Below, piece after piece: positions 1-13,141 of a DNA stretch of 13,141 bases (position 1 is the stretch's first letter; every line of letters begins with the position of its first letter). A program made the translations under genes and the position numbers. The stretch is from an uncultured Clostridiaceae bacterium (GTDB lineage: Bacteria; Bacillota; Clostridia; Lachnospirales; Lachnospiraceae), in assembly GCA_949841235.1 (NCBI GenBank), contig CATKZA010000009.1, positions 1-13,141 of the forward strand, read 5' to 3'. Below the pieces are notes generated by a model, which ran no database searches, was not told where the DNA came from, and worked only from the letters and a program-made list of their open reading frames with translations.

Positions 1-187
1 GATCGTAGCCTTTCCTGGCGAGGTGTTTGCGAGCCAGGAAAGACTTCGCACATTTATAGACGAAAAGGAAACTGCTCGAAGTGTTCGTTGCGAAGAACGC
101 TGATTTTGCGTTCTTCCAAGGTGCGATCGTAGCCTTTCCTGGCGAGGTGTTTGCGAGCCTGGAAAGACTTCGCACCTTTTTTATAGA
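1..187. repeat. Structured non-coding direct repeat, two copies with 124 bp period
   Basis: Positions 1-50 recur at 125-174 with one visible mismatch (A36 versus T160). The similarity runs a little further, to a shared TTTATAGA at 53-60 and 180-187, so the last bases of mntP lie in the repeated unit. Copy 1 contains a perfect 9-bp inverted repeat, CTTTCCTGG (10-18) with CCAGGAAAG (34-42); the mismatch in copy 2 shortens this stem to 6 bp. The spacer between copies holds another perfect 9-bp stem, GAAGAACGC (92-100) with GCGTTCTTC (108-116), around a 7-nt loop. I see no protein-coding signal here. The array may continue upstream of the window. Function is unknown; a dispersed or tandem palindromic repeat, or the 3' end of an upstream transcript, are both possible. 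Confidence 0.75.
120..182 (+). terminator. Possible intrinsic terminator formed by repeat copy 2
   Basis: GGTGCGA (120-126) pairs with TCGCACC (170-176), and CTTTCC pairs with GGAAAG inside it. Six T residues (177-182) follow on the plus strand. This would end a plus-strand transcript entering from the left, converging on mntP. On the minus strand the hairpin is not followed by a T-run, so it is a poor terminator for mntP. The long, interrupted stem makes this uncertain. Confidence 0.45.
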
Positions 188-750
188 ATCCCCAAATGTT
201 CTAAAAGTATTTTTATGCCAAGTAGTACCAGAATCATGCCTCCCGCAACCTGCGCCTTCTTCTCATATCTGTTGCCAAATCGAAAGCCGATGGCCACCCC
301 GGTTACGGACAGCACAAAAGTCGTGCAGCCAATGAGCGTGATGGAAGTCCAGATATTCGTCCCCGGAAGCAGTGCGAAGGTGATGCCGATAATCAGGGCA
401 TCGATGCTGGTGGCGATGGCCAGCACAAGCAGCTGGCGGATTTTGATTGCGTCCCCTTCCTTGTCCGGCTGCTTTTCCCCCCTGCATGCCTCATACAGCA
501 TTTGCCCTCCGATAAATGCCAGCAGTGCGAAAGCGATCCAGTGATCTACGCTTTCGATATATTTCTGGAAGCCAATGCCTGCAAAATAGCCCATGAGCGG
601 CATAAGCGCCTGAAAGCCTCCGAAGAAAAGACCGATCACCACCCCGTGTTTCAAGTTAAACTTGGACATGCCCAGACCTTTGCACACAGACACTGCAAAG
701 GCATCCATAGACAAGCCGATGGCAATTAGAAATAATTCACTAAGCCCCAT
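181..750 (-). CDS. mntP: Manganese efflux pump MntP
   Basis: MntP exports Mn2+ across the cytoplasmic membrane and protects cells from manganese excess. The 189-residue product matches the usual length of the family and is almost entirely hydrophobic, with about six membrane segments in two similar halves. Each half carries the family's acidic motif: GLSMDAF with Asp16 in helix 1, and ATSIDAL with Asp117 in the second half. These correspond to the aspartates known to matter for E. coli MntP. A hydrophilic loop (about residues 86-101, GEKQPDKEGD) separates the halves. The ATG at 748-750 is chosen because AAAGGAG lies about 7 nt upstream. The frame stays open to 834, but that extension would run through the riboswitch terminator and is not plausible. 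The gene is monocistronic here and is preceded by a manganese riboswitch, which independently supports the assignment. Confidence 0.95.
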   Translation of the reverse strand: MGLSELFLIAIGLSMDAFAVSVCKGLGMSKFNLKHGVVIGLFFGGFQALMPLMGYFAGIGFQKYIESVDHWIAFALLAFIGGQMLYEACRGEKQPDKEGDAIKIRQLLVLAIATSIDALIIGITFALLPGTNIWTSITLIGCTTFVLSVTGVAIGFRFGNRYEKKAQVAGGMILVLLGIKILLEHLGIL

Positions 751-780
751 TTTTCCACTCCTTTCACTTTCCCAACAACG

Positions 781-806
781 AAAAAAGATGCAGTTATCAC
801 TGCACC
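781..806 (-). terminator. Riboswitch-controlled intrinsic terminator upstream of mntP
   Basis: Read on the minus strand, GGUGCAGU-GAUA-ACUGCAUC (806 to 787) forms an 8-bp stem, with one G-U pair, and a tetraloop. It is followed directly by six U residues (786 to 781). It lies 30 nt before the mntP start codon and is the expression platform of the riboswitch. Confidence 0.85.
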
Positions 807-821
807 TTTCATTCATCCGAG

Positions 822-855
822 GACTTTCAAGCACAGAAATAACTGTGCAAAAGTC
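822..855 (-). promoter_or_regulatory. Anti-P1 hairpin of the mntP leader
   Basis: On the minus strand, GACUUU (855 to 850) pairs with AAAGUC (827 to 822), and GCACAG (848 to 843) pairs with CUGUGC (836 to 831). The 5' arm overlaps the 3' strand of aptamer helix P1 (853-846) and three bases (845-843) of the putative antiterminator strand. This hairpin and the ligand-bound aptamer therefore exclude each other. This is a prediction from complementarity only. Confidence 0.6.
839..845 (-). promoter_or_regulatory. Putative antiterminator strand of the mntP riboswitch
   Basis: CAGUUAU (845 to 839 on the minus strand) is perfectly complementary to AUAACUG (797 to 791), which is part of the loop and 3' arm of the mntP leader terminator. 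It lies immediately after aptamer P1. Folding P1 would free it to break the terminator, giving an ON switch with Mn2+. Confidence 0.5.
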
Positions 856-1076: not shown

Positions 1077-1106
1077 TTGAAAGAGTACTGCAAAAAGTGG
1101 TATAAT
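1077..1106 (+). promoter_or_regulatory. Sigma-A promoter of the four-gene operon
   Basis: TTGAAA (1077-1082) and a perfect TATAAT (1101-1106) are spaced by 18 nt. Transcription would start near 1113, leaving a short leader of about 44 nt before the ATG at 1157. No riboswitch or attenuator is visible in it. Confidence 0.8.
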
Positions 1107-1156: not shown

Positions 1157-4100
1157 ATGAGAGATAAAGTCAATCAGGCGGCAAAAGGCGTTTTTGAATA
1201 TAGTCCCTCTGCGCTGAAGCTTTCCCACCGGGAAATTGAGGTGGAGGTGAATGCGGGAGAATCCTATCAGGGTTCCTTTTCGGTGACCAATGAGAAGAAG
1301 CGATTTCTGCGGGGCCAGGTCAGCACGGACTGCCACTTTCTGGAATTGCCGGAAGAGTTTTTTGAGGGTGTGGAGAATGATATACCCTATATTTTTCACG
1401 GCGAATCTCTCCGACCCGGGGAGACGGTAAAGGGAAATGTCATCGTGATTACCAGCTGCGGCACCGTGGTGCTTCCTTTCCGGGGGACGATGGGGGTGCC
1501 TTCCTGCCAGGTGTCTACCGGAAGAATCAAGGATTTGTTTCATTTTACCAATCTGGCGAAGGAGCAGCCGGAGGAGGCCGCCGCTCTCTTTCGGAATCCC
1601 CATTTTGAGGAGATATTCCTGTACCGGGACAACAAAAATATTGCCCTGTACCGGGGGCTTTCCAAGGGAGCCAGCCGGGGCATGGCATTGGAGGAGTTCC
1701 TCATCGCCATACATAAGAAATTGCCTATCCGGCTGACTGTGAACAGGCAGGATTTTCAGTATGATGATTGCTCTAGGAGTTTTACCGATCGGTTTATCCT
1801 CACGAAGAACAACTGGGGCTTTGGAGAGTACCATATTAAATCAGACAGCCCCTTTGTCATACCGGAGCATAAGATCATTTGGACGGAAGATTTTGCGGGG
1901 AATACCTGCTCCATTCCTTTCCTGGTGGACGTGGACCAGATGCAGCCCGGTAAGAATTATGCTCGGATCACGGTGTCCAATATCAGCCAGAAGATAGACA
2001 TAGACATTGTGGCGGCCAGAGAGAATGGCCGTTGGGAGGAATTGCAGGTCAGGAAAAAGAATCGATACAATTTGTACCAGCTTACCCACCTCTACATTGA
2101 ATTCTGCATGGGGCGGCTGGACAGGGAGGAGTACCTGAAAGAAGTAGAGGGCGTAATCTATACGATGGAGAAGTCAGGCATGGAACTGGTGACCCAGTTA
2201 TTCCGCATCCATTTGGGAATCATGGGACACCGGGAGTCTGCGGTCAAAAATGGCCTGGCGTTCCTGGAAGAGCAGGAGGAGGAATTGGAGCGGGAACATC
2301 CGGTAAAATACTGTGCCTATCTTTATCTCAAAGGTCTGTGGGCGGGGGAGGAAGAGGTGACGAAGTCCTGCGTTGCCAAGATTGAGGAATTTTATCAGAG
2401 GGACAGGGATAACTGGAAGCTGCTCTGGTTCTTATTGTACCTGTCTCCGGAATACCAGCTGGAGAGAAAGAAGTATGAGGAGATCGTGGTGCAGCTGGGC
2501 AGAAATTGCCACAGCCCGGTGATGTTCGTGGAAATATGCAGTATTTTGAACGATGCTCCCGGGTTGCTGACGGAATTGACGCCGGGGGTTTGCGAGGCCA
2601 TTCACTGGGGCAGCAAGAAGCAGTTCGTGGAGAAGGAGGTGGCACTGCGCTATGGCTATCTGGCGGGGCGGCTGAGGAATTATTCCGAGGCCGTGCTAAA
2701 GGATTTGTGCCGATTTTATGAGCAGTTTCAGGATGAGGAAATGCTTTCTTCCATCTGCAAGATGCTGATGAATGGGCAGATTACCGGGAAGAGGGCATTT
2801 TACTGGTACAGTTTGGGGGTGGAGCATAACCTGAAACTGACAGATCTGTATGAATACTACATGTACTCCATTGATGAGAGTCAGGAGATGAAGCTGCAGG
2901 ACAGCACCCTTCTCTATTTCTTGTATGACAATCATCTGACGGTGACCAAAAAGGCCATGCTGTATGCCTATGTTGTGCGGAATAAGTCAATGATGGAGGA
3001 GACTTACGAGTCCTATCGCCAGATGATGGAGGACTTTACCCTGCGGCAGCTGGCGGCGGGCAGGATTAGCAATAATCTGGCAGTGCTATATGAGGAGTTT
3101 ATCAAGGAGGGGTGCGTCAATGAGACCATTGCCTCGGAACTTCCCGCCGTGATGGTCAGCCATGAGATTCTCTGCGAGAATCCGGATATCGTGGGAGTGT
3201 ATGTGACTCACAGGGAATTGAAGGGGGAGGAGTTTGTCCCGTTCGTGAAGGGGCGGGCGGTGGTGCAGATTTTTACCGAGAATTACCAGATATTCCTGGC
3301 GGATGCCCTGGATAACAGATATGCTCTTTCCGTGGATTATACGGTGAATAAGTTGCTTCATCTGGAACATCTTGCCATGACCTGCTATGAAATGCATTGC
3401 CAGGATGACAGATTGCTTCTGTATCTCTATGACAGGGCGGAGCGGATGAACCAGTCCGGGAGGGAGATCGTGGATATCCGCCGGGATATTTTGAAGATCG
3501 CCAATCTCAGCAGATATCATTACAGGAAGAGTTTCTGCTCTCTGGTGCGGTATTATTATGATAATTTTGAGGGGGAATTGCTGGATGCCACGCTGGAACA
3601 GCTGGACTGGGGGCTGGTCACTCCCGGGGATCGAGTGCAATTTATCGAGTATTGCACGGTGCGCAGATATTTTGACAAGGCCATGGAGGGAATCGCCCTC
3701 TATGGATATGATAAGATTGACGGAAAGAGACTGCTGAAAGTTTCTTCTGAAACATTTGCCCGAACCATGGAGAAGGAGGACAAGCATCTGGTGCGGATTG
3801 CCTGGCATATTTTCCAGAGCGGGCATTTCGATGAGAATATGCTTGGATACCTGTGCCGATATTATAATGGAAGGATTTTCGACCTGGTGCAGATTTGGCG
3901 GTATGCCAAGGGATTTTCCATTGATACGGGGGACTTTGCGGAGCGGATTCTTGGGCAGATTCTCTTCACGGAGGAAATGCTGCCGGATGCCTACGACGTG
4001 TTCTACCAGTATTACGAAGCGGGCAAGGACAAGCGGCTGATTCTGGCATTTATGAAGTTTGTGGCATACAACTACATGGTGCGGGGGTGGATGATTCCCA

Positions 4101-4708
4101 GCCAGATGTTCGGATATTTTTATAAGGATGTGCAGATTCAGGACAATGTGTTCTGCCTGATTGCCACATTAAAGTATCTGAGCCAGAAGGCGGAACTTTC
4201 GGAGGAGGAAAAGAAGTTTGCGGATTACCATGTGAACAAGATGTATGAGCAGAAGAAGGTATTCCCCTTCTTTCGGGATTTTTACGGCAAATTGTCCCTG
4301 CCCATTCATATTCTGGACGAGTATTATGTGTCTTATACCACCAATCCTGAATATGAGGTAAAGATTCATTATCTGATCTCGTCGGGATATGAGGAGGGGG
4401 AATATGTGACGGAGACCATGCGGGATATGTTTCAGGGAATCCGTGTGAAGGAATTTGTCTTGTTTCAGGATGAAATACTGCAATACTATATTTCCGAACT
4501 GCGGCCGGAGGGGGAAGTGATTACCAAGAGCGTCAGCGTGAAGTTTGATGAGACGATGGACAATGAGCGCACTAGCAGCCGGTATCATATGCTGAACCTG
4601 ATGATGATTGCCCAGGAGATGAATGAGGAGAATACGCTGATTGATATGATGCGGGAATATGTGGAGACAAGGAAGTGCGTGGATACGCTGTTCAAGCCCG
4701 TGGACTAG
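1157..4708 (+). CDS. Large DUF5717-family protein: two beta domains plus helical-repeat tail
   Basis: This is a 1183-residue protein of unknown function, with no signal peptide or membrane segment, so probably cytosolic. Residues about 20-112 read as an Ig-like beta sandwich (alternating hydrophobic strands, with NAGESYQGSFSVTNE and RPGETVKGNVIV like the strand pairs of bacterial Ig-type domains). A helical linker (about 120-185) precedes a second beta domain (about 188-285). From about 300 to the end it is almost wholly helical, rich in Tyr, Leu and Glu, and arranged like degenerate TPR/HEAT-type repeats, suggesting a scaffold or solenoid. I match it by recollection to DUF5717, found in Lachnospiraceae next to DUF5716. 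The ATG at 1157 is preferred over the in-frame ATG at 1115, because GGGAGGA lies 5 nt before it and the upstream ATG falls at the predicted transcription start. It is the first gene of the operon. Its last codons are duplicated just after the stop codon. Confidence 0.85.
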   Translation: MRDKVNQAAKGVFEYSPSALKLSHREIEVEVNAGESYQGSFSVTNEKKRFLRGQVSTDCHFLELPEEFFEGVENDIPYIFHGESLRPGETVKGNVIVITSCGTVVLPFRGTMGVPSCQVSTGRIKDLFHFTNLAKEQPEEAAALFRNPHFEEIFLYRDNKNIALYRGLSKGASRGMALEEFLIAIHKKLPIRLTVNRQDFQYDDCSRSFTDRFILTKNNWGFGEYHIKSDSPFVIPEHKIIWTEDFAGNTCSIPFLVDVDQMQPGKNYARITVSNISQKIDIDIVAARENGRWEELQVRKKNRYNLYQLTHLYIEFCMGRLDREEYLKEVEGVIYTMEKSGMELVTQLFRIHLGIMGHRESAVKNGLAFLEEQEEELEREHPVKYCAYLYLKGLWAGEEEVTKSCVAKIEEFYQRDRDNWKLLWFLLYLSPEYQLERKKYEEIVVQLGRNCHSPVMFVEICSILNDAPGLLTELTPGVCEAIHWGSKKQFVEKEVALRYGYLAGRLRNYSEAVLKDLCRFYEQFQDEEMLSSICKMLMNGQITGKRAFYWYSLGVEHNLKLTDLYEYYMYSIDESQEMKLQDSTLLYFLYDNHLTVTKKAMLYAYVVRNKSMMEETYESYRQMMEDFTLRQLAAGRISNNLAVLYEEFIKEGCVNETIASELPAVMVSHEILCENPDIVGVYVTHRELKGEEFVPFVKGRAVVQIFTENYQIFLADALDNRYALSVDYTVNKLLHLEHLAMTCYEMHCQDDRLLLYLYDRAERMNQSGREIVDIRRDILKIANLSRYHYRKSFCSLVRYYYDNFEGELLDATLEQLDWGLVTPGDRVQFIEYCTVRRYFDKAMEGIALYGYDKIDGKRLLKVSSETFARTMEKEDKHLVRIAWHIFQSGHFDENMLGYLCRYYNGRIFDLVQIWRYAKGFSIDTGDFAERILGQILFTEEMLPDAYDVFYQYYEAGKDKRLILAFMKFVAYNYMVRGWMIPSQMFGYFYKDVQIQDNVFCLIATLKYLSQKAELSEEEKKFADYHVNKMYEQKKVFPFFRDFYGKLSLPIHILDEYYVSYTTNPEYEVKIHYLISSGYEEGEYVTETMRDMFQGIRVKEFVLFQDEILQYYISELRPEGEVITKSVSVKFDETMDNERTSSRYHMLNLMMIAQEMNEENTLIDMMREYVETRKCVDTLFKPVD

Positions 4709-4761
4709 GAGGGCACTTCCAAGAAGTGCGTGGATACGCTGTTCAAGCCCGTAGAGTAGGG
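4672..4761 (+). repeat. Tandem duplication of the 3' end of the DUF5717 gene
   Basis: A segment of about 39 bp that encodes CVDTLFKPVD plus the stop codon (4672-4710) recurs at 4723-4761, exactly 51 bp (17 codons) later and in the same frame. Only about three bases differ (GTGGAC versus GTAGAG before the stop, and one near the end). The second stop codon (4757-4759) overlaps the ribosome binding site of the next gene. This suggests that the ancestral gene ended there and that the first stop was created by duplication. Codons between the copies would read EGTSK. Confidence 0.85.
4713..4729. repeat. 7-bp perfect hairpin at the duplication junction
   Basis: GCACTTC (4713-4719) and GAAGTGC (4723-4729) form a perfect stem with a 3-nt loop. 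The left arm, extended to GCACTTCC, is also the reverse complement of GGAAGTGC at 4671-4678, the start of the first duplicated copy. No T-run follows, so it is not an intrinsic terminator. Confidence 0.6.
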
Positions 4762-4774
4762 GAGGTTGTTGGAT

Positions 4775-6043
4775 TTGGATTTTGATAAGGAAAGGACATT
4801 GCTTGTGGGGGTTGACTTGGGAAGAGAGGTCACCCAGGTGAATTGCTTTGACTTTACCACCTATGAGCCGGTACCCATCGGCAGGGACAAGGGAGGGGAG
4901 AGAGGCTATGAGATTCCCACGGCACTTGCGGTGAATCCTGCCCGGGGGGAATGGTACTGGGCGGACGAGGAGCTACCTTCCCGGGAGCAGGTCATCAGGA
5001 TCACCTATCTTCTGGCAGATGTGTTGCGGGAAGATACCATTACGGTGGGGGATTACACGGTGGAGAGCTACCAGGTTTTGAAGCGATTTCTCGTAAAGGT
5101 GCTGAGCGTACTGAAAGGATATTATCCCAGGGAGCGGATACGGAAGCTGGTAATTACCTTGGCAGAGAAGGAAGAAAAGCTGGTGAGATATCTCCAGCAG
5201 ATTGGCCGGGAGATCGGATTGCCGGAGAATGCCTTGGTGGTGCAGAATCACAGGCAGAGTTATATGTACTATGCCATCAGTCAGCCCAAGGAATTGTGGG
5301 TGAATAATGTGGGGATGTTTCAGCTGGAGGGCAATCAACTATTGTATTCCCAGATAGATATTGACAGAAAGACCATGCCTCTTATTATCGGTGTCGTACA
5401 GAAAGATTTGTCGGAGGGACTGGACTGGGAGGGACTGGCGGAGGAGGGGCCGGAGCAGATTTCCTACGCCTTTCTCAATGTGGCGGGGGCGGCATTGCAC
5501 AAGCAGTATGTCACCACGGTGTATGTCACGGGCAAGGGCTTTGAGCGAGATTGGGCGGGGGATGCCCTGAAGGAACTGTGTACCGGGCGCCGGGTGTTCC
5601 GGGGGCAGAATCTCTTTACCAGAGGGGCCTGCTATGCCGCCAGGGAACTTTCCGGGGAGGGGAAGCTGGAGAATTGCCTCTTCCTAGATGAAGATATGAT
5701 TGACAGCAATATCTCCCTGCGGCTCTATCGGGATGCGGAGGTGCAGGATGTGCTGATGGTGGGGGCCGGCTCCCTGTGGAATGAAGTGGATGCCAGCGTG
5801 GATGTGATTCCCGATGAGGAGGATGAAATTCAGATTACCGTGCAGAACGTATTGAAGCGGGAGTCCAGAGCCCACATGCTCTCCCTCAGCGGATTTGCCG
5901 GCAGGGAGAATAAGATGACCAGATTTACCATCCGCATCCGGTTTGGGGACAGCAGTACCTGCATCGTCACGTTGAAGGACAATGGCTTCGGGGAGTTCTG
6001 CCCCGGGAGCAACAGAGTGTGGGAGCGGCATATTGCCATCTGA
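4775..6043 (+). CDS. DUF5716-family actin/Hsp70-fold-like protein
   Basis: This is a protein of about 422 residues resembling the ASKHA (actin/Hsp70) fold. Near the N-terminus, LLVGVDLGREVTQVNCFD (about residues 9-26) resembles the phosphate-1 loop of Hsp70 (IGIDLGTT-type). Later, VYVTGKGFERDWAGDALKEL and FTRGACYAAREL (about 250-290) resemble the adenosine motif and the helix after it. The phosphate-2 region expected near VGMFQLEGNQLLYSQI lacks the usual acidic, glycine-rich loop, so ATPase activity is doubtful. The last 100 residues are beta-rich and could be a substrate- or partner-binding domain. I recall the family as DUF5716, usually beside DUF5717. No ATG is available. AGGGGAGG (4758-4765) fits TTG at 4775 (9-nt spacing) better than TTG at 4769 (3 nt) or 4766 (0 nt). 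A MITE-like insertion sits at its stop codon. Confidence 0.8.
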   Translation: MDFDKERTLLVGVDLGREVTQVNCFDFTTYEPVPIGRDKGGERGYEIPTALAVNPARGEWYWADEELPSREQVIRITYLLADVLREDTITVGDYTVESYQVLKRFLVKVLSVLKGYYPRERIRKLVITLAEKEEKLVRYLQQIGREIGLPENALVVQNHRQSYMYYAISQPKELWVNNVGMFQLEGNQLLYSQIDIDRKTMPLIIGVVQKDLSEGLDWEGLAEEGPEQISYAFLNVAGAALHKQYVTTVYVTGKGFERDWAGDALKELCTGRRVFRGQNLFTRGACYAARELSGEGKLENCLFLDEDMIDSNISLRLYRDAEVQDVLMVGAGSLWNEVDASVDVIPDEEDEIQITVQNVLKRESRAHMLSLSGFAGRENKMTRFTIRIRFGDSSTCIVTLKDNGFGEFCPGSNRVWERHIAI

Positions 6044-6044
6044 T
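6037..6044. repeat. Left target-site duplication of the MITE-like element
   Basis: CATCTGAT is repeated exactly at 6238-6245, directly outside both terminal inverted repeats. It contains the TGA stop of the DUF5716 gene (6041-6043), so duplication on insertion left the reading frame intact. Confidence 0.85.
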
Positions 6045-6237
6045 GTTACTATTCACAGCTATTTCTAGAAATAGACTAGAATCGTTGTGCTTGCACATAA
6101 GATTCTGGTTCTTTTCTAGAAATATGCTGTGGAGGCTGTTCATCCCATCATAAGATAGACAAAGCCGTATAGCGGCGACCGATGCCGTCAGGCAGCGGGT
6201 CTATCGCATGATGAGATGAACGGCTGTGAATAGTAAC
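6045..6237. mobile_element. 193-bp MITE-like element with 15-bp terminal inverted repeats
   Basis: The ends are GTTACTATTCACAGC (6045-6059) and its exact reverse complement (6223-6237), flanked by the 8-bp direct repeat CATCTGAT (6037-6044 and 6238-6245). Inside, two long arms can fold. A left arm (6054-6131) is closed by CACAGC with GCTGTG and contains TTTCTAGAAATA-type complementarity. In a right arm, 6138-6160 pairs with 6199-6221 at 20 of 23 positions, around small GC-rich hairpins (for example TGCC-GTCA-GGCA). It has no open frame of meaningful length and no transposase, so it must be mobilised in trans. The 8-bp duplication is compatible with families such as IS66 or ISL3, but I cannot assign a parent. 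Being transcribed within the operon, it may also act as an RNA structure affecting expression of the third and fourth genes. No T-run terminator is visible in it. Confidence 0.85.
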
Positions 6238-6245
6238 CATCTGAT
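6238..6245. repeat. Right target-site duplication of the MITE-like element
   Basis: This is the second exact copy of CATCTGAT, immediately following the right inverted repeat. From here the sequence leads into the ribosome binding site of the TPR gene, so the pre-insertion junction was probably DUF5716 stop, then about 33 bp to the next ATG. Confidence 0.85.
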
Positions 6246-6276
6246 ACAAGGGTCAAAATACTAAGGGAGGCAGGTT

Positions 6277-7116
6277 ATGGGAAAACTGATACAGTGCAGC
6301 AGCGAACTTGCGAGGGAGCCATATCATTTTCGACTGACCAAGACGAATGTGTACTCGATGGAAGAGGTGTGCTATTATATCCGCCACAATATCTATATGA
6401 TGCAGGAGGAGGTCTTTGACCGGGAGTTTGCCCAGTGGATTCGCCGGGAACTGCATATGGACAAGACGGCGGACAAGCTGGAGCGGCTCATTGATGACCA
6501 TCGGAATATGAAGGATATCGTGGTTACCCTGTGCTGTAGTTGTGATTATTATGAGGAGGATGAAATCCGGGAACTCATCAGAATTATTGACGAGACAGAG
6601 CATCTGCCGGGCTATGCCAGGAAAAAATATAAGGGAGACAATTACCTTCGCTGCCAGTCCTACGAGAAGGCGGTGGAGGAGTATGAGAAGGTGTTCGAGA
6701 GCGATGAGATTCTCCAGGCGGAGGCATCGGTGTATGGGGATTTATTCCACAATATGGGGGTTGCCTATGTGAATATCGGGGAGTTTCACAAGGCTTCCGA
6801 TTTGTTTCTCAAGGCCTATGAGAAAAATAATCGGGATGAGTCTCTGGCTCAGTGCATGTATGCCCTGCGGATGTGCAAGGATGTGGGGACTTATAAGAAA
6901 TTGATCAATGATTTGGAGGTTTCCCAGGAGGATCAGGGAAGGTGGGACAAAGAGTACCAGCGGGCTATGGAGCTGGCCGGCGGCAGCAGGGAAGCGAAGC
7001 GGGTGGAGAAGCTGCGGGGGCTGGTGCGAAGTGGAAATATGGAAGAGTATTATGAGAAGGTTCACAGCACCATTGCGGCTTGGAAGAATGAATATCGAAA
7101 GCAGATTAGCATCTGA
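6277..7116 (+). CDS. TPR-containing protein of the DUF5717/DUF5716 operon
   Basis: This is a 279-residue soluble, charged, helical protein. Residues about 1-110 form an unrecognised helical N-terminal part. Residues about 112-145 (YKGDNYLRCQSYEKAVEEYEKVF) and 150-187 (DLFHNMGVAYVNIGEFHKASDLFLKAYEKN) are two good tetratricopeptide repeats, with the typical small residue at position 8 and the YxKAxxxaxKA pattern. The C-terminal 80 residues are helical and basic. TPR proteins usually bind protein partners, so a role as adaptor for the neighbouring Hsp70/actin-like protein is a fair inference, not shown. The ATG is supported by AGGGAGG 6 nt upstream. The gene is separated from DUF5716 by the MITE-like insertion and ends 14 bp before the next start, consistent with co-transcription. 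Confidence 0.88.
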   Translation: MGKLIQCSSELAREPYHFRLTKTNVYSMEEVCYYIRHNIYMMQEEVFDREFAQWIRRELHMDKTADKLERLIDDHRNMKDIVVTLCCSCDYYEEDEIRELIRIIDETEHLPGYARKKYKGDNYLRCQSYEKAVEEYEKVFESDEILQAEASVYGDLFHNMGVAYVNIGEFHKASDLFLKAYEKNNRDESLAQCMYALRMCKDVGTYKKLINDLEVSQEDQGRWDKEYQRAMELAGGSREAKRVEKLRGLVRSGNMEEYYEKVHSTIAAWKNEYRKQISI

Positions 7117-7130
7117 GATGGAGGAGCGTC

Positions 7131-8390
7131 ATGGCTTTTTGGAATAGAAGAAAGAGAAAACGGATAGAGGAGGAAGAGGCTCTTCTGGAGCAGCAGGCCA
7201 GGGAGAAACTGGATGCCCTGCGGGAGCAGAAAAGGCAAGCCCGCAATGAGGTTCAGGAGGATTCGGAGGAGGAGACTTCTGAAAAGAATCCGGATCTTTA
7301 CGAGCGGGAAGTGGTGAAGCCGGTGTATGGCGACGACAGGAAGCGGTATGTCACTGACTGCTGCGAGGCAATCCGTGAGGCAGAGAAGCAGATTGACAGT
7401 ATTCGGGGCGAGTATCAGGAGGTGACGGATTCCCTGCTGGACATCCAGAAAATTGACCGAATCCAGGGAGAGGAACGAAAGCAGCTTCTGGATTATGGGA
7501 AGAATATTGTTCGGCTGACCAGGGAGCGGAGCCAGTATAAGAATAGAAACCTTTCTATCCCGGAGGCCGTGATTCGCCGTTTCGAGCCATATGAGGATGA
7601 TCTGGTAGATGAGATTAAGCGGATGTATGAGACGGAGAACTACCAGAAATTGATTGAGGGAGATTTGGAGAAACTTCACCAGGAGAAGAAGAAGATCAGG
7701 CATGAGAAGAGGGAGATCGTAGAGCGGCAGAATGCATTGAAGAAGCTGGCCAAGCTGTTAATCTTCCTCATTGTATCCATGTTTGCCCTCTTTGTGGCGG
7801 CTTATTATACCCTGAAGGCGGATATGACATTTCCCTATCTGGCTACCGTGCTTCTGGCAGCCATTTCCGCCACGGTGATTTTTGTGGAATCCAACAAGAA
7901 CCGGAGGAGCATGACCTTGGCGGACAGAAAGATGGATAAGGCGATTCTCCTCCTGAACCGGGTGAAAATCAAGTGCGTGAACAATCTGAATGTGCTGGAG
8001 TATGGCCGGGAGAAATTTGGCGTGAAGAATGGGGCGCAGTTCGAGCAGTTCTGGAATGAGTACTGCAAGGTGAAGGAGTATGAGAGGAAGTTCCGTGAGA
8101 ATACGGAGCAGCTGAATTATTACTGCGATGTGCTGGTGACGCTGCTTCGGCAGCAGGGATTGAGAGATAGCGAGGTCTGGACGGGGCAGGTGCTTGCCAT
8201 CGTGGATAATCGGGAGATGGTGGAGATTCGCCATGAGCTGAATGCCCGCCGTCAGATTCTCAGGGAGCGCATCGAGTACAACGAGGGGATTAAGGCGGAC
8301 TGCGTGAAGCAGATTGACCAGTTGGTGGCGAAGCAGCCGGAGCACAGGGAAGAGATTCTAAAGATCGTGGAACAGTACAGTAAATCTTGA
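7131..8390 (+). CDS. Coiled-coil protein with a central two-helix membrane hairpin
   Basis: This is a 419-residue protein of unknown family. Residues 1-45 are very highly charged (KRKRIEEEEALLEQQAREKL). Residues about 75-205 are predicted long helices or coiled coil rich in Glu, Lys, Arg and Gln. Two hydrophobic stretches follow, LLIFLIVSMFALFVAAYYTL (about 208-227) and FPYLATVLLAAISATVIFVE (about 234-253), split by a short polar turn. Residues about 260-419 are again charged helices. This topology puts both coiled-coil ends in the cytoplasm with a re-entrant membrane hairpin, suited to anchoring a complex at the membrane. There is no signal peptide. GGAGGAG precedes the ATG. It is the last gene of the operon: an intrinsic terminator begins at its stop codon. 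I do not recognise a catalytic motif. Confidence 0.88.
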   Translation: MAFWNRRKRKRIEEEEALLEQQAREKLDALREQKRQARNEVQEDSEEETSEKNPDLYEREVVKPVYGDDRKRYVTDCCEAIREAEKQIDSIRGEYQEVTDSLLDIQKIDRIQGEERKQLLDYGKNIVRLTRERSQYKNRNLSIPEAVIRRFEPYEDDLVDEIKRMYETENYQKLIEGDLEKLHQEKKKIRHEKREIVERQNALKKLAKLLIFLIVSMFALFVAAYYTLKADMTFPYLATVLLAAISATVIFVESNKNRRSMTLADRKMDKAILLLNRVKIKCVNNLNVLEYGREKFGVKNGAQFEQFWNEYCKVKEYERKFRENTEQLNYYCDVLVTLLRQQGLRDSEVWTGQVLAIVDNREMVEIRHELNARRQILRERIEYNEGIKADCVKQIDQLVAKQPEHREEILKIVEQYSKS

Positions 8391-8421
8391 GCGGCCTTCT
8401 ATACCATCAGGCCGCTTTTTT
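8390..8421 (+). terminator. Intrinsic terminator of the four-gene operon
   Basis: AGCGGCCT (8390-8397) and AGGCCGCT (8409-8416) form a perfect 8-bp GC-rich stem with an 11-nt loop, and T residues run to 8421. The stem begins at the last base of the upstream stop codon and lies mostly within the 3' codons of the convergent YhgE/Pip gene. On the opposite strand no U-run follows the hairpin, so it appears to act on plus-strand transcripts only. Confidence 0.88.
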
Positions 8422-10429
8422 CCTTGCTTCTTTCAATATAGGCATTGATTTTGCGGAAGGGTTTCTTTAGCAGCAGTGCCATGGCTAGGAAGAACAGGGC
8501 AAAGAGGAGGAGTTTTCCCAGTGCAATCCAGTAGTCCTCTTTATACATCCCTGCCACGCATTCCCGCAGGGCGGTCATGCAGTAGGGGAAGGGCAGGAAG
8601 TCAAAGGCCTTCTGATAGATGTCCGGCAGTACTTCCTTGGGGAAGGTGCCGCCGGTGCCTGCCACCTGGATGACCATGATTACCACTGCCAGCGCTTCCC
8701 CCACGTTGCCAAACACGAAGGTCAGGGAGTAGATGATGATGGTGAAGACGAAGCTGCTCACTGCCGCCGCCAGCCAGAAGAGGAATGGGTGCTGGCACTG
8801 GATTTCGAGAAAGAACAGGTCCCCCAGCACGCATAAGAGGGTTTGAGCCTGGCCAATCAGGAAAAATAGGGCATAGCGGCCGAAAAATTCCTGGTAGGTC
8901 TTTAATGCGGCCATTCCCGGGGCGGGATGGATGTTCAGGTGAATGATGGCCACCAGAATCAATGCTCCCACCCAGATGGCCAGAACCGAGTAAAAGGGAG
9001 CCATGGAGGAGCCGTAATTGGCGGTCTCGTATACGGGAAGGGTATCCACTTCCATAAGGGAAGAAAGGTAGTCGCTAAATTGCTTCGGATCCTGTGACAG
9101 GAGGGCGAACATCTCCTGGAACCGGGCGTTTCCAGTGATTTCGGCGATGCCTTTTTTTGTTTCCCGCAGTGCTTTTTGCAGTTCCTGCAATATTTTTCTG
9201 GTTTCGTCGATGTTTGAGCCGGCAGTTTTCAATGTGTCCGCATAGTCTGTGAGGCGTACGCCGGCCGCTTGCAGCCCTGTCAGCCGGATGGCATTTCCAG
9301 GGAGGAGGGAGAGGTCGGTCTGGAGATCCTGCGTCAGTTTGTCGCACATTTTGCTGACGGTGGTCAATGTCTCCTTCCCGGTAGTTCCGGCATCCCGGAT
9401 GGCTTGGAGGGATGCCAGGTCGTCGGTGATGTCTAGGTCAATCTGGTCTAATTTTTCTGTCAATGCCTGTTCCGGCGCACTTTGGGATTGTATTTCCTTC
9501 AGGGAATTTCCCAGTTTCAATCCAATTTCTGTCACGGCGGCAAAGACGGAGCGGTTGACCTGGTTCTGTACTGCCGTCTTGGCTTTTGAGGTGATTTTTG
9601 TGGCGATGGCATTCTTTTTTTCGTTCTCGTAATAAGAAATCGTTCCCCCGGACAGTTCGCCCTCCAGCACTACCGCCAGGCTTTTGGTGAAGTTTTCGGG
9701 AATGACTAGGGCGGCGTAGTAGTCCCCGTCATATACGCCATTGATGGCCGTCCGTTCATTTTTTGGAAAAGCCCAGCCCATGGTGGTGTTGGCGGAGAGG
9801 GATTCCACTACCGTGTCCCCCACGCAGAGTTTGATCTGATTTTTCTCGTAGCCCTTGTCTTTGGAAACTACTGCGATCTTCAAACGAGAGGTGGCATCTT
9901 CCTCGTAGGGATCCCAGTTGGAGAGGATGTTGAACCAGGCATAGAGGGAGGGGAGGATTACCAGCCCCATGATGATGACGATGGCTACCACATTGGTGGA
10001 GATTTTGCGGTAGTCATGCAATATGATGCCCAGAATATTTGCGCTATCCGAGAACTTCTTTTGCCCGCTCTCTTTTGTTTCGCTGTCCGAGCGCTTCTTT
10101 TGCCCGCCCTCTTTTGTTTCGCTATCCAAAAGGCTCCTCTGCCCATGCTCTTCGCTTTTGCTAATCTGTGCGATGGCTTTCTGTATCCGAAAGTCCCCGT
10201 ATTCCACATAAATCAGGTAAGCGGCCAGCAGGAAGAGGGAGGCGATCCACAGGGTCAGGAAGAGCACCTTGTTGCTTCCCGTCAGGAACATGAGCAGGAG
10301 AAAGAAGAGGGGGATGATTAGGATGCACCGAATGCCTGTGCGGATGCGTTTCCGATTTCGGGCATGGAGCTTCTCCTGCTGTTCCATCATATCCTGATAT
10401 AGCTGCTGGTAATTTTTCTGTTCGTTCAT
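8399..10429 (-). CDS. YhgE/Pip-family membrane protein with extra N-terminal two-helix module
   Basis: This is a 676-residue member of the YhgE/Pip family (the phage infection protein of Lactococcus and YhgE of Bacillus), an ABC-2-like membrane architecture. The family core starts near residue 145 with a membrane helix and the signature YAWFNILSNWDPY (about 160-174). A large extracytoplasmic region follows (about 180-470, partly coiled coil), then five or six C-terminal membrane helices (from about 475), including a conserved FPFPYCMTALRE stretch. Unusually, residues 1-143 add a cytoplasmic helix, two membrane segments (about 33-51 and 54-75) and a polar linker with a 13-residue tandem repeat (104-129). 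ATG 10429 is chosen because GAAAGGA lies 11 nt upstream; an extension to TTG 10477 has no binding site. It follows the paralogue 10487-12568 by 57 bp and is probably co-transcribed with it. Confidence 0.9.
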   Translation of the reverse strand: MNEQKNYQQLYQDMMEQQEKLHARNRKRIRTGIRCILIIPLFFLLLMFLTGSNKVLFLTLWIASLFLLAAYLIYVEYGDFRIQKAIAQISKSEEHGQRSLLDSETKEGGQKKRSDSETKESGQKKFSDSANILGIILHDYRKISTNVVAIVIIMGLVILPSLYAWFNILSNWDPYEEDATSRLKIAVVSKDKGYEKNQIKLCVGDTVVESLSANTTMGWAFPKNERTAINGVYDGDYYAALVIPENFTKSLAVVLEGELSGGTISYYENEKKNAIATKITSKAKTAVQNQVNRSVFAAVTEIGLKLGNSLKEIQSQSAPEQALTEKLDQIDLDITDDLASLQAIRDAGTTGKETLTTVSKMCDKLTQDLQTDLSLLPGNAIRLTGLQAAGVRLTDYADTLKTAGSNIDETRKILQELQKALRETKKGIAEITGNARFQEMFALLSQDPKQFSDYLSSLMEVDTLPVYETANYGSSMAPFYSVLAIWVGALILVAIIHLNIHPAPGMAALKTYQEFFGRYALFFLIGQAQTLLCVLGDLFFLEIQCQHPFLFWLAAAVSSFVFTIIIYSLTFVFGNVGEALAVVIMVIQVAGTGGTFPKEVLPDIYQKAFDFLPFPYCMTALRECVAGMYKEDYWIALGKLLLFALFFLAMALLLKKPFRKINAYIERSKEKSGLMV
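10043..10127 (-). repeat. 39-bp in-frame tandem repeat in the YhgE/Pip linker
   Basis: Two 39-bp units (10043-10081 and 10082-10120) differ at only a few positions and are followed by a 7-bp start of a third (10121-10127). They encode DSETKEGGQKKRS and DSETKESGQKKFS, a polar linker between the added N-terminal membrane module and the family core. The unit length is a multiple of three, so copy-number change would keep the frame. Confidence 0.85.
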
Positions 10430-10486
10430 GGAGATACCATTCCTTTCATTTAAAGTTGATTGCGTCGCGCTTGGCAAATATATGTA

Positions 10487-12568
10487 TTAAAAGATCTCCG
10501 TGTCCTCCATCCGTGACTCTACGAAGTGACTGAGACTGCGGAAGGGCAGGCGGAGAACCAGTCCGATGAGCAATGCGGCCAGGGCAAAGAGCAGCAGTTC
10601 CAGCAGGTAGATCAGGTAGTCATTTCCATTCATGCCGCATATCGCCTCCCGCATGGCATTGATGGCATAGGGGAAGGGGAAGAATATGTGGATCTTCCGA
10701 TAAAAGGACGGCAGGATTTCAATGGGAAACGTGCCGCTGGAGCCGGCAATCTGGATGACCACGATGACTACGATAAACGCCTTGCCGATGTCGCCGAAGG
10801 ACAGGGTCAAGGTGTAAATCAGCAGGGAGAAGGTGAAGCTTGCTAATGCGGCGGCCAGCCAGAAATGTCTTGGCAGCTGGCATTGGGTGTGGAGGAGCAT
10901 CAGGTTGCCCGCCACGATGATCAAGGCCTGCAATTGTCCCAGCAGAAAGAATAGGATGTACCTCCCCAGAAAGAGTTCGTGGGGCTTTGCTCCCGGAAAT
11001 TTTTTCGCATCCGGCTTTACCTTCAATAGGGATACCAGGAAGATTCCGCCCACCCAGATGGCCAGGGTGGTGTAGAAGGGAGTGACCCCGGAGCCATAGT
11101 TTTCCACCGGGTACACTCGCTGGGTCTTTATTTTTACCGGGGTGGCAAAGAATGCGCCATATCCCTCCGGGTCCCGCTGCACGAAGTCGGAAATCTTTTG
11201 AAGGAGCTCGCTGTCTGACAGGGTGCCCAGACTGGTATAGATCCTGTCTAATTTTTGAGTAATCTGCTGTAGCGTCTGGGAAAGGGAGGTCATGCCGCTG
11301 TTTGCGGACTGCAATGTGGCATCTGCCCCGGTGATGATCGTCTGGAGCAGATCGGCATCATCTGCAATGTTCGCCAGGGCATGCTTCCTATCCCGCTCCA
11401 GGGTGTCCAGCAATTCTCCCAATTCCTCGCTGGCGGGGACGATAATGCCCTGGTATGCCTTTCGTATGGCGTTCATCTGATTGGAAATCGTATTTTCTAC
11501 AACTGTAGAAATCTCGTCCTTCTTGCTCTCTGAAACCTCATCCAGCCGCTTTTTCAAAGCATCTATGCTGGCAATCTGCTCCCTTGCCTGATTTGTCAGA
11601 GCATGGTATCTTTCTGCGATGGTGCCGGTCACAGCGCTTGGCTTGAGGAATTGCGAGAACCTGCTTAATTCCTTTTTGGCCTTCTCTAACTGGCTGGCGG
11701 CTTTCTGATAGAGCTTCTTCCGCTGGGAGATGCTTTTGGCGGAACTGGCTTTCTCCATGCTTAGGGTGGCAGAGGAGAGTGCCTGATTGATGGCACGGTT
11801 CTTCTGGCTGATCCGGGAGAAGAGTTTGCTGTCATTCTCGCTGATATTCTCTGTTCTTTGCTTGAGGTTTTCCAAATCTGCCGATGCATCCTCCAAGGTG
11901 CCGCCTAATTTGCTATTTGCCTGCTGGAGGGAATTCAGGGTGGCGCAGTATCCCGAGATGGTGTCCGCTGTCTGGGAAATGCGCTCCTGGAGCGTGGTCA
12001 CCGCTTGTTCCTCTCGGATTCTGTCCGCTATCTGAGCCTCCTTTGTAAACACGTTGCTCACTAAGATGGAGATGTACATCTCGTTAAGGCTGTTCTCCAG
12101 ATTGGAGACAGCGGTGTCCGTAATCTTAGTGGCCACGGCATTTTTCTTCTCGTTGACCAGGTATTGAATTTTGGGGCGCTTCAGCCCTTGGCGGAAACCG
12201 TCATACATATTCCGGGAGAAATCCTCGGGAAGGATGATGGCGGCGTAGCAGTCCCCGCTGTCTACCTGTTTTCTGGCAGATGCCGCAGAGGTGAATACCC
12301 AGCGGATGCTTTTGTTGTCTTTTAGGGATTTGATGACTTCCTCCCCGGCGTTTGAGGTTTTCCCGGTGCTGTCAGCAAAGCCCTTGTCCCGGGACGCCAC
12401 CGCAATCCGCAGATTTCCCGTGCTGCCATAGGGATCCCAGTTGGAATAGATGTTGAACCAGGCGTACAGCGCAGGCAGGGCGCAGAGACCTAGGGCGATG
12501 GCGAGGACGAAGAAATTGCTGAAAAGGGCCTTCATATCTGATCGGAATATTTTTAGTATCATTTTCAT
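10487..12568 (-). CDS. YhgE/Pip-family membrane protein (first of the pair)
   Basis: This is a 693-residue protein with the canonical YhgE/Pip layout. One N-terminal membrane helix (about 14-35) ends in YAWFNIYSNWDPYG (about 36-49). It is followed by a mixed extracytoplasmic domain (RIAVASRDKG, then NEKKNAVATKITD near 145) and a long coiled-coil stretch (about 180-440, rich in Ser, Gln and Lys). About five C-terminal membrane helices follow, with FPFPYAINAMREAICGM. The first two motifs and the C-terminal region closely match the neighbouring gene, so the two are tandem paralogues. Family members are large cell-surface membrane proteins; Lactococcus Pip is needed for infection by some phages, and the normal cellular role is unclear. 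Of three clustered ATGs, 12568 is preferred: AAGGAG is 8 nt upstream, versus 2 nt for ATG 12574. The stop is followed by 57 bp and the second paralogue, with no terminator between. Confidence 0.92.
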   Translation of the reverse strand: MKMILKIFRSDMKALFSNFFVLAIALGLCALPALYAWFNIYSNWDPYGSTGNLRIAVASRDKGFADSTGKTSNAGEEVIKSLKDNKSIRWVFTSAASARKQVDSGDCYAAIILPEDFSRNMYDGFRQGLKRPKIQYLVNEKKNAVATKITDTAVSNLENSLNEMYISILVSNVFTKEAQIADRIREEQAVTTLQERISQTADTISGYCATLNSLQQANSKLGGTLEDASADLENLKQRTENISENDSKLFSRISQKNRAINQALSSATLSMEKASSAKSISQRKKLYQKAASQLEKAKKELSRFSQFLKPSAVTGTIAERYHALTNQAREQIASIDALKKRLDEVSESKKDEISTVVENTISNQMNAIRKAYQGIIVPASEELGELLDTLERDRKHALANIADDADLLQTIITGADATLQSANSGMTSLSQTLQQITQKLDRIYTSLGTLSDSELLQKISDFVQRDPEGYGAFFATPVKIKTQRVYPVENYGSGVTPFYTTLAIWVGGIFLVSLLKVKPDAKKFPGAKPHELFLGRYILFFLLGQLQALIIVAGNLMLLHTQCQLPRHFWLAAALASFTFSLLIYTLTLSFGDIGKAFIVVIVVIQIAGSSGTFPIEILPSFYRKIHIFFPFPYAINAMREAICGMNGNDYLIYLLELLLFALAALLIGLVLRLPFRSLSHFVESRMEDTEIF

Positions 12569-12613
12569 GGTCATTGCTCCTTGGTTCGGTATTTTGATCG
12601 TGATATCGTATGG

Positions 12614-13141
12614 TCAATTGCGAACAGTAAAGTAAAGGGTTTGGTCAAAACGTCTTTCAGGACTAAGTTTATCAATATAGCCATTTTCAATGATTGAGTA
12701 AACTACTGATTTGTGAAGCATGGGCTTGGCTGTGCGAGGCGATTCTACGTATGTCCTCCATTTATTTCCCGGGATAGAAAATTCTTTATCTGTCTGATTT
12801 CCAAATGCCATTTGACGGTAGATATCAGTGATGCGGATTTTTCCCGATTTGCTTAATTCCCAAAGGCATCTCGCAAGCCTAGCGGTTGCCCGCATCGGTC
12901 TGCTCATGGTTTTTACGTTCTCATAAGAACTATCAATGAATAGTCTGGAGAAAGCATAGTCGCTCCAAATGACGATATCAAATGCTTGCTCAGATAATAG
13001 AGGGGATTTGCCCAGTGTTTTCCATAATGTTTGCATCAGTAGCGGTTTCTGATTTTGATGGTATTTTTTTTCAAATTCATCAATGCTCTTGCTAAGCGTT
13101 GGTGTTTTGTATGTCATTTCAAAATCATTGTCCCATCCTTG
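12614..13141 (-). CDS. Unrecognised protein, 5' end probably outside the window
   Basis: The frame is open from the window edge to a TGA at 12614-12616. The first in-window ATG (13117) would give 167 residues. It has no clear ribosome binding site at normal distance, and the codons upstream of it (reading QGWDNDFE) are protein-like with no stop, so the gene most likely continues past the right edge. The product is soluble and basic. Its last 85 residues (for example SGKIRITDIYRQMAF, then SVVYSIIENGYIDKLSPERRF and a final strand) could be a winged-helix fold, but this is only an impression from the pattern. Base composition is visibly more AT-rich than the rest of the window, which may mark acquired DNA. 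It ends 45 bp before the start of the YhgE/Pip pair on the same strand, so read-through into that pair is possible. No family is proposed. Confidence 0.6.
   Translation of the reverse strand, partial: QGWDNDFEMTYKTPTLSKSIDEFEKKYHQNQKPLLMQTLWKTLGKSPLLSEQAFDIVIWSDYAFSRLFIDSSYENVKTMSRPMRATARLARCLWELSKSGKIRITDIYRQMAFGNQTDKEFSIPGNKWRTYVESPRTAKPMLHKSVVYSIIENGYIDKLSPERRFDQTLYFTVRN

What the first reader, a model, noticed from the sequence alone, without database searches (positions are those of the whole stretch)
1157..8390. Four-gene operon that looks like a membrane-tethered Hsp70/actin-like assembly of unknown function
One promoter (1077-1106) and one terminator (8390-8421) bracket four same-strand genes. 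They encode a 1183-residue beta-plus-solenoid protein, an ASKHA-like protein with a recognisable phosphate-1 loop and adenosine-type motif, a TPR protein, and a coiled-coil protein with a central membrane hairpin. Seen in the sequence: the order, spacing and motifs. Known: Hsp70 proteins commonly work with TPR partners. Inferred: the four form one complex at the cytoplasmic membrane, with the last protein as anchor, the first as scaffold and the ASKHA protein as switch or chaperone. I recall the first two only as domains of unknown function (DUF5717, DUF5716).
Basis: partly seen in the sequence, partly recalled or inferred. Interest (0 to 1): 0.75.

Follow-up and report, generated by a model that had tools for sequence, protein, structure and literature searches.

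The report
Hsp70 cluster shrunk to pseudo-chaperone core
Nearly every genome sampled in this family of gut bacteria keeps a small gene set of unknown function that looks like the remnant of a larger protein-folding (Hsp70) machine whose energy-using parts have been lost, which makes a widely conserved but unexplained piece of bacterial biology testable.

Summary
The four genes are real and in the stated order, but the reading changes. Gene 2 (DUF5716) belongs to the Hsp70 lineage but looks dead: in the 31 homologues examined the catalytic glutamate and threonine are never kept (0 of 31), nor the lysine (0 of 28 with a letter there), about 75 residues (subdomain IIB) are missing, and there is no lid. 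In other families of the order the same locus is a cluster of up to nine genes: PapD-like protein, solenoid, HspA, GrpE-tailed coiled coil, HspB, HspC, Hsp70-vWA (HspD), TPR, two-TM coiled coil. There HspA, HspC and HspD keep the catalytic residues, and HspB is the relative from which DUF5716 derives. HspA and the GrpE protein are absent from 60 of 60 own-family genomes. Genes 1-3 are in 147-148 of 150 own-family genomes, almost always adjacent; a recognisable membrane gene is in only 62, so tethering is optional. Gene 1 starts with two PapD-like sandwiches, then a TPR-like solenoid. Inferred mechanism: a nucleotide-independent adaptor complex resembling Ssz1. An actin-like assembly is not supported. 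A 193-bp MITE separates genes 2 and 3.

The parts
1077..1106 (+). promoter-like site (TTGAAA-18-TATAAT, extended -10)
   Evidence: 17 such sites in the window against 13.4 expected by shuffling, so weak alone
1157..4708 (+). gene 1, DUF5717_N + DUF5717, 1183 aa scaffold
   Evidence: 148 of 150 own-family genomes
1205..2023 (+). gene 1 residues 17-289: two PapD/MSP/ASH-like beta sandwiches with a helical linker (residues 127-184)
   Evidence: AlphaFold2 mean pLDDT 85.5; fold matches
2054..4705 (+). gene 1 residues 300-1183: TPR-like alpha solenoid; a separate ~900-aa protein in many loci of related families
4672..4709 (+). 3' end of gene 1, copied almost exactly at 4723-4760 (95% identical over 38 nt)
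4766..6043 (+). gene 2, DUF5716: pseudo-Hsp70, 425 aa (start at one of the TTG codons 4766/4769/4775)
   Evidence: 147 of 150 own-family genomes
4793..5665 (+). gene 2 nucleotide-binding-domain remnant (about residues 10-300), lacking subdomain IIB
5693..6037 (+). gene 2 SBD-beta-like domain (about residues 310-424), no alpha lid
6045..6237 (.). 193-bp MITE-like element, 15-bp perfect inverted ends, inserted at the stop codon of gene 2
6037..6044 (.). left copy of the 8-bp target-site duplication CATCTGAT
6238..6245 (.). right copy of the 8-bp target-site duplication CATCTGAT
6277..7116 (+). gene 3, TPR protein, 279 aa; relative of the ~390-aa TPR protein of the large cluster
   Evidence: strong match in 147 of 150 own-family genomes
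7131..8390 (+). gene 4, coiled coil with membrane hairpin, 419 aa; optional
   Evidence: strong match in 62 of 150 own-family genomes
7746..7886 (+). gene 4 hydrophobic hairpin (about residues 206-228 and 234-252)
   Evidence: hydropathy by eye
8389..8421 (+). intrinsic terminator (9-bp stem, T run)

Best explanation
The operon is the reduced core of an Hsp70 system so far seen only in the order Lachnospirales. In other families of the order the locus encodes three Hsp70s with intact catalytic residues (one carrying a vWA domain), a catalytically degenerate Hsp70 (HspB), a GrpE-tailed coiled coil that should serve as nucleotide exchange factor, a PapD-like protein, a TPR-like solenoid, a TPR protein and sometimes a two-TM coiled coil. 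In the window's family (f1; Lachnospiraceae by recall) the motor parts were lost from the locus. HspB shrank to DUF5716 by losing subdomain IIB, the lobe that GrpE holds in DnaK (recalled). Inferred mechanism: DUF5716 is a nucleotide-independent pseudo-chaperone. Its SBD-beta and dead nucleotide domain form a fixed docking surface, in the manner of yeast Ssz1. It is held by the TPR protein on the PapD-like/solenoid scaffold of DUF5717 and binds a client or partner. Where the fourth gene exists it anchors the complex at the membrane. Shown: homology, losses, gene order, fusions. Inferred: one complex, its clients, its process.
Against: No protein-protein interface was predicted or measured. Nucleotide binding without hydrolysis cannot be excluded: the phosphate-1 Asp is kept in 28 of 31 and one adenosine Gly in 31 of 31. 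The gene-2 model has low confidence at residues 179-245, and whole-length superpositions have high rmsd (22.6 A to 5obv). The fourth gene is not recognisable in most genomes. No J-domain partner like Zuo1 is encoded among the eight window ORFs or the eight cluster proteins of L094 that were scanned. HspC and HspD were not searched for in whole own-family genomes. The tree is a quick one with several long branches. No phenotype, expression or client data exist here.
Confidence: 0.55

Rival explanations
1. DUF5716 acts on the cell's housekeeping DnaK or HscC-type Hsp70, positioning it or helping nucleotide exchange (like Sse1/Hsp110 or Ssz1), so the operon is a targeting co-chaperone rather than a self-standing complex.
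For: Own-family genomes keep other Hsp70s (59 of 60 have Hsp70-like matches; the own, 66% complete genome has none); Ssz1 and Sse1 structures are among the best fold matches; Ssz1 is reported to bind canonical Ssb (PMC8476630, passages read).
Against: Subdomain IIB is deleted and the alpha lid, which Sse1 uses, is absent; nothing seen links the locus to dnaK.
Confidence: 0.2
2. Genes 1-3 are co-expressed but their products do not form one stable complex.
For: Synteny is not proof of contact; no interface was modelled.
Against: Genes 2-3 are fused in 6 of 147 genomes, at three places in the tree; the N and C parts of gene 1 are fused or split by lineage; adjacency holds in 142 of 146 and 146 of 147 genomes, each of a different genus.
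Confidence: 0.12
3. Stress, conflict or anti-phage system comparable to the GAP1-N2 GTPase/HSP70-GrpE systems.
For: The large form shares HSP70, GrpE, vWA and beta-domain/TPR parts with that theme (PMC7159879 section 29). HspD and the TPR protein of L094 have weak PADLOC matches. Four unverified 'Bacteriophage sp.' scaffolds carry gene 1.
Against: No GTPase among the eight L094 proteins; the four window proteins have no PADLOC match at E 0.1 and no PHROG match at 1e-3; near-universal in the family; gene 1 has no match in 72,556 plasmid records.
Confidence: 0.08
4. Active Hsp70 switch or chaperone.
For: Hsp70 fold and phosphate-1 Asp retained.
Against: Catalytic Glu and Thr are lost in 31 of 31 homologues and Lys in 28 of 28 with a letter there; the GrpE protein is gone.
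Confidence: 0.04
5. Actin-like filament-forming assembly.
For: Distant common ASKHA fold (recalled).
Against: All 10 PDB sequence matches of the DUF5716 profile are DnaK, none actin-like; subdomain IIB is deleted.
Confidence: 0.01

Closest known systems
Ssz1 of the yeast ribosome-associated complex (atypical Hsp70)
   Different: Ssz1 binds ATP and pairs with a J-domain protein on the ribosome; DUF5716 also lacks subdomain IIB and no J-domain was found with it. Convergent, not orthologous (inferred).
DnaK-DnaJ-GrpE, HscA and HscC Hsp70 systems
   Same: Common Hsp70 ancestry; the large form of this locus has Hsp70s with intact catalytic residues and a GrpE domain.
   Different: Extra paralogues including a vWA fusion, no J-domain seen in the L094 cluster, seen only in one order; a review describes three types of prokaryotic Hsp70, DnaK, HscA and HscC (PMC8215388, passages).
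GAP1-N2 GTPase-centric conflict systems with HSP70 and GrpE
   Same: HSP70, GrpE, vWA, beta-domain plus TPR, membrane parts (PMC7159879 section 29).
   Different: No GTPase or tubulin among the eight L094 proteins; near-universal distribution with one DUF5716 match per genome.
Pfam DUF5717_N, DUF5717, DUF5716_C
   Same: The window proteins are members.
   Different: Pfam gives no function, and its HSP70 model does not reach DUF5716: 0 of 22 family members match HSP70 at E 0.01.

Membership tests
Hsp70 lineage (ancestry) | Hsp70-type nucleotide-binding-domain fold | tested here: met
Hsp70 lineage (ancestry) | SBD-beta after the nucleotide domain | tested here: met
   HspB-containing profile aligns to DnaK from position 17 to 501; model residues 10-425 align to lid-less DnaK
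Functional Hsp70 ATPase | catalytic Lys, Glu and phosphate-2 GGT loop | tested here: not met
   K70 0 of 28, E171 0 of 31, T199 0 of 31, G197 2 of 31, G198 0 of 31
Functional Hsp70 ATPase | subdomain IIB | tested here: not met
   63-78 residues between the motifs in 31 rows, against 143 in one DnaK and 117-152 (median 148) in 20 HspB rows
Functional Hsp70 ATPase | alpha-helical lid | tested here: not met
   median 171 residues after the adenosine motif (fused TPR rows longer) against 313 in one DnaK
Functional Hsp70 ATPase | nucleotide binding and hydrolysis | not testable with these tools
   needs purified protein
Ssz1-like atypical Hsp70 (analogy) | partner J-domain protein | tested here: not met
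   no J-domain among eight window ORFs or eight L094 proteins; elsewhere in the genomes not tested
Actin-like filament proteins (MreB, ParM, FtsA) | closer to actin-like than to Hsp70 proteins | tested here: not met
   10 of 10 PDB sequence matches of the DUF5716 profile are DnaK
Actin-like filament proteins (MreB, ParM, FtsA) | polymerisation | not testable with these tools
   needs biochemistry
GAP1-N2 GTPase/HSP70 conflict system | TRAFAC GTPase in the cluster | tested here: not met
   none in the Pfam scan of the eight L094 cluster proteins; other loci not scanned
GAP1-N2 GTPase/HSP70 conflict system | HSP70 together with GrpE | tested here: met
   large cluster only; cluster GrpE protein absent from 60 own-family genomes
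DUF5717/DUF5716 families | score over Pfam cut-off | tested here: met
PapD/MSP/ASH-like domains (gene 1 N-part) | fold | tested here: met
PapD/MSP/ASH-like domains (gene 1 N-part) | sequence relationship | tested here: inconclusive
   no PDB sequence match below E 0.37 for the N-part profile

The most novel reading that the evidence does not exclude
Lachnospirales evolved their own Hsp70 machine beside DnaK, HscA and HscC: three Hsp70s with intact catalytic residues, a pseudo-Hsp70 and a private GrpE-type factor on a PapD-like/solenoid scaffold. In Lachnospiraceae it was then stripped of every ATPase, leaving a pseudo-chaperone complex that serves a basic, family-wide cell function without nucleotide cycling.
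Probability: 0.4. Interest if true: 0.85.

Novelty: new variant of a known kind. Interest (0 to 1): 0.7.

Why it matters
DUF5716 (one match per genome, 147 of 150) and DUF5717 (148 of 150) are near-universal in the window's bacterial family and have no function; the one paper found that names either is unrelated by its title (listing only). Tying them to a multi-Hsp70 cluster gives them an origin, a fold and testable biochemistry. It also offers a natural series from catalytically intact Hsp70 (HspA/C/D) through catalytically dead Hsp70 (HspB) to a pseudo-Hsp70 without subdomain IIB (DUF5716), with absence of the exchange-factor gene in the same lineage: a direct way to ask what an Hsp70 is good for once it can no longer cycle.

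Tried and rejected
Rejected or dropped: (1) Class-level match G539 to DUF5717_N (8.3e-5, below cut-off): the fetched locus L106 has no gene-1 match with the iterated profile. (2) Weak Pfam match of gene 4 to Vma12 (3e-5, below cut-off): taken as coiled-coil similarity. (3) Alignment A6 of whole gene 1 with split N and C rows looked misaligned and was not used; the N-part alone was folded, so the solenoid half has no model. (4) Defence reading: the four window proteins have no PADLOC or PHROG match; of the six L094 cluster proteins also given to PADLOC, HspD matched PDC-M61B (6.2e-7) and the TPR protein matched three models. (5) Four 'Bacteriophage sp.' faecal scaffolds carry gene 1; two were fetched and hold all four genes in order (gene 4 is short in one). 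They are unverified records, so I treat them as likely bacterial DNA, not tested. (6) Neighbouring genes gave no functional clue: a divergent class I/II aminotransferase upstream (two checked) and, in many loci, a ~880-aa gene downstream (size of alaS, not identified). (7) Literature: I saw listings only, some capped (8 of 28, 8 of 2,065); nothing listed is about this locus by title, but this covers only the open-licence library and those listings. (8) Hsp70 classes were assigned by motif words. One row labelled B, a piece from L086, belongs to HspD in the tree; a recount without it leaves the HspB figures unchanged apart from the adenosine Gly (19 of 19). HspB rows of L105 and L122 have long branches.

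Biases to know: the 31 own-family loci (30 fetched plus the window) were picked by hand, partly for low scores and for long fused frames, and two are near-identical, so the 6 of 31 fused rows there are not a rate; 6 of 147 is. In one search I copied best-hit coordinates. G125's gene-1 place was not listed and is left out. For G031, whose gene 1 lies on two contigs, I used the piece on the contig of gene 2. Two weak gene-4 matches (G010, G110) and one weak gene-3 match (G022) were dropped. Of 75 loci, 31 at 34% identity or less were taken as ordinary DnaK without a check and left out of the maps. HspA bit scores in own-family genomes and in orthologues come from similar but not identical profiles.
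Full report
Observation. Gene 1 is DUF5717_N + DUF5717, gene 2 DUF5716_C, gene 3 a TPR protein, gene 4 a coiled coil with two hydrophobic segments. The promoter-like site is good but not beyond chance as a class (17 found, 13.4 +/- 3.2 expected). The terminator is convincing (-14.8 kcal/mol, z -4.35, 1 of 200 shuffles as good).

Distribution. In 150 own-family genomes (149 of at least 90% completeness and the own genome, 66%; each of a different genus) DUF5716_C is found in 147, one match each, DUF5717_N in 148, a strong gene-3 match in 147 and a strong gene-4 match in 62. Neither Pfam family rings in any of the 14 control genomes. Best hits lie side by side on one contig for genes 1-2 in 142 of 146 genomes with both places listed, for genes 2-3 in 146 of 147, and for genes 3-4 in 61 of 62. 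The misses lie on different contigs; assembly breaks were not checked. A phylum draw of 299 genomes had 4 matches to DUF5716_C, all in the own family, own genome included. A class draw of 118 had 5 matches to DUF5717_N: 4 own-family and one below cut-off that was not confirmed. A class draw of 243 had 9 matches to the N-part profile, all own family; it held only three genomes of other families of the order, all negative. An order draw of 77 had 39 matches to DUF5717_N: 8 of 8 own-family and 31 of 69 from other families.

What the locus is elsewhere. In those other families the N-part and solenoid are often separate proteins (about 400 and 900 aa), followed by several Hsp70 genes. One example with eight of the nine genes (L094, cut by the contig end) was scanned. 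HspA matches HSP70 (3.1e-75). A 642-aa coiled coil ends in a GrpE domain (4.7e-9). HspB matches both DUF5716_C (1.7e-23) and HSP70 (5e-20). HspC (6.9e-61) and HspD (7.6e-95, with a vWA domain) match HSP70, and a 390-aa TPR protein closes the run. Over 16 coiled-coil members GrpE matches in 16. Of 29 fetched loci from the order, counting loci with a best-class match, 24 have HspA, 22 the GrpE protein, 21 HspB, 18 HspC and 17 HspD, many being cut by contig ends. Downstream stretches of 16 genomes show gene 4 directly after the TPR position in five (L130, L131, L135, L137, L138), and L162 holds all nine genes in order. So the window's order is the large order with its middle removed.

Named carriers. 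A scan of named genomes with HspA gave 44 loci at 55% identity or more, from Defluviitalea phaphyphila, other Defluviitaleaceae, Candidatus Epulonipiscium MAGs, Vallitaleaceae, Petrocella and unnamed Clostridia. Defluviitalea and Petrocella are placed in Lachnospirales. The D. phaphyphila contig has the same length (262338) as the contig of G572, a same-order genome, so the window's order is very probably Lachnospirales. In these 44 loci, some cut by contig ends, the counts are: gene-1 parts 33, GrpE protein 36, HspB 35, HspC 24, HspD 24, TPR 19, gene 4 in 7.

How it died. HspA and HspC (24 and 18 rows) keep every catalytic residue counted, and HspD keeps all in the rows with letters there (14-16 rows). 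HspB keeps the phosphate-1 Asp (19 of 20) but has lost K70 (0 of 19) and T199 (0 of 20), with near-normal spacing between phosphate-2 and adenosine motifs (median 148, range 117-152). DUF5716 has those losses and in addition a spacing of 63-78 residues in 31 of 31 rows: subdomain IIB is gone. HspB of L086, the row nearest to DUF5716, still has 139. In the tree the 31 DUF5716 rows form one group, support 98, next to HspB of L086, support 99; the other HspB rows, apart from one misnamed HspD piece, lie between this group and the catalytic classes (quick method, midpoint root, several long branches). HspA is absent from 60 of 60 own-family genomes (best score 211 bits, against 885-1097 for orthologues on a similar profile). 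The GrpE protein is absent too: 10 of 60 have matches, but nine reach only the GrpE end of the profile and one starts at 447, all in frames of 200-239 aa. None of the HspA, HspD or GrpE-protein profiles rings in the 31 own-family loci. Reduction is therefore the simplest history; the reverse would need separate insertions and regrowth of a subdomain. HspC and HspD were not searched for genome-wide in the family.

Scaffold. The first 315 residues of gene 1 fold as two beta sandwiches joined by five helices (pLDDT 85.5). Best matches over both domains are arrays in ciliary central-apparatus and centrosomal proteins, with rmsd above 12 A, so the arrangement differs. Single-domain matches, PapD-type chaperones and HYDIN among them, are 1.8-2.3 A over 85-101 residues in the best rows. 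Other Ig-like sandwiches tie and there is no sequence match, so this is a fold statement only. The second half has TPR-like repeats.

Mechanism. Inferred: DUF5716 cannot run an Hsp70 cycle, so its conserved value must be binding. Ssz1 is the closest working model: it is described as binding ATP with little or no hydrolysis, as having no SBD-alpha, and as forming an unusually stable complex with Zuo1 (PMC8476630, passages read). The TPR protein is the likeliest direct partner, since the two are one protein in 6 of 147 genomes, at three places in the tree. Gene 4 is optional, so membrane attachment is not the core function.

Local oddity. Between genes 2 and 3 sits a 193-bp element with 15-bp perfect inverted ends and an 8-bp target duplication that contains the stop codon of gene 2. 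The own genome gives 59 match rows, several being arms or reverse matches of one copy. Of 20 match places fetched, the five of 193-194 bp carry exact 8-bp duplications, as do two longer variants (298 and 302 bp); three other paired-end places (197, 246 and 247 bp) do not, and the rest have no paired ends. As RNA it folds at -105.6 kcal/mol, z -11.8, so it may weaken read-through to genes 3 and 4 here.

Verdict. The finding is real and more interesting than stated, in a different way: not a live Hsp70/actin-like assembly but the remnant core of an Hsp70 machine. Papers: listings; PMC7159879 in passages and section 29; PMC8476630 and PMC8215388 in passages.

Noticed in passing
window 6037-6245: MITE-like element, 193 bp, 15-bp inverted ends, 8-bp target duplication, strong hairpin; 59 match rows in the own genome; 298 and 302-bp variants also carry 8-bp duplications.
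   Followed up: yes
window 4672-4709 and 4723-4760: The last 38 bases up to the end of gene 1 are repeated just after its stop codon, 95% identical, 51 bases apart.
   Followed up: no
window 8399-12574, - strand: Two adjacent YhgE/Pip-family membrane proteins, each with an N-terminal match to the type VII secretion protein EsaA below its cut-off.
   Followed up: no
window 12614-13141, - strand: C-terminal part of a HindVP-type restriction endonuclease (2.1e-40, profile 166-326 of 332); its frame runs off the end of the window.
   Followed up: no
window 181-834, - strand: Putative manganese efflux pump MntP.
   Followed up: no
L168, L173, L176, L179: HspA stands alone, without the rest of the cluster beside it, in four Defluviitaleaceae MAG contigs.
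   Followed up: partly
L101 and L167: Loci from contigs of equal length (58713), probably the same contig: N-part and solenoid at one place, HspA-GrpE protein-HspB at another, so the cluster can be split.
   Followed up: partly
L096, L134: In G580 extra small genes, some with membrane segments, lie between the cluster genes.
   Followed up: no
L254, L255 (MT835486.1, MT835988.1): Unverified faecal 'Bacteriophage sp.' scaffolds hold the same four-gene order, probably bacterial DNA.
   Followed up: partly
L094:142-1245, L090:13567-14715 and similar: A class I/II aminotransferase (two checked by Pfam) lies divergent from gene 1 and recurs by size across families, and a ~880-aa gene often follows gene 4 or gene 3.
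   Followed up: partly
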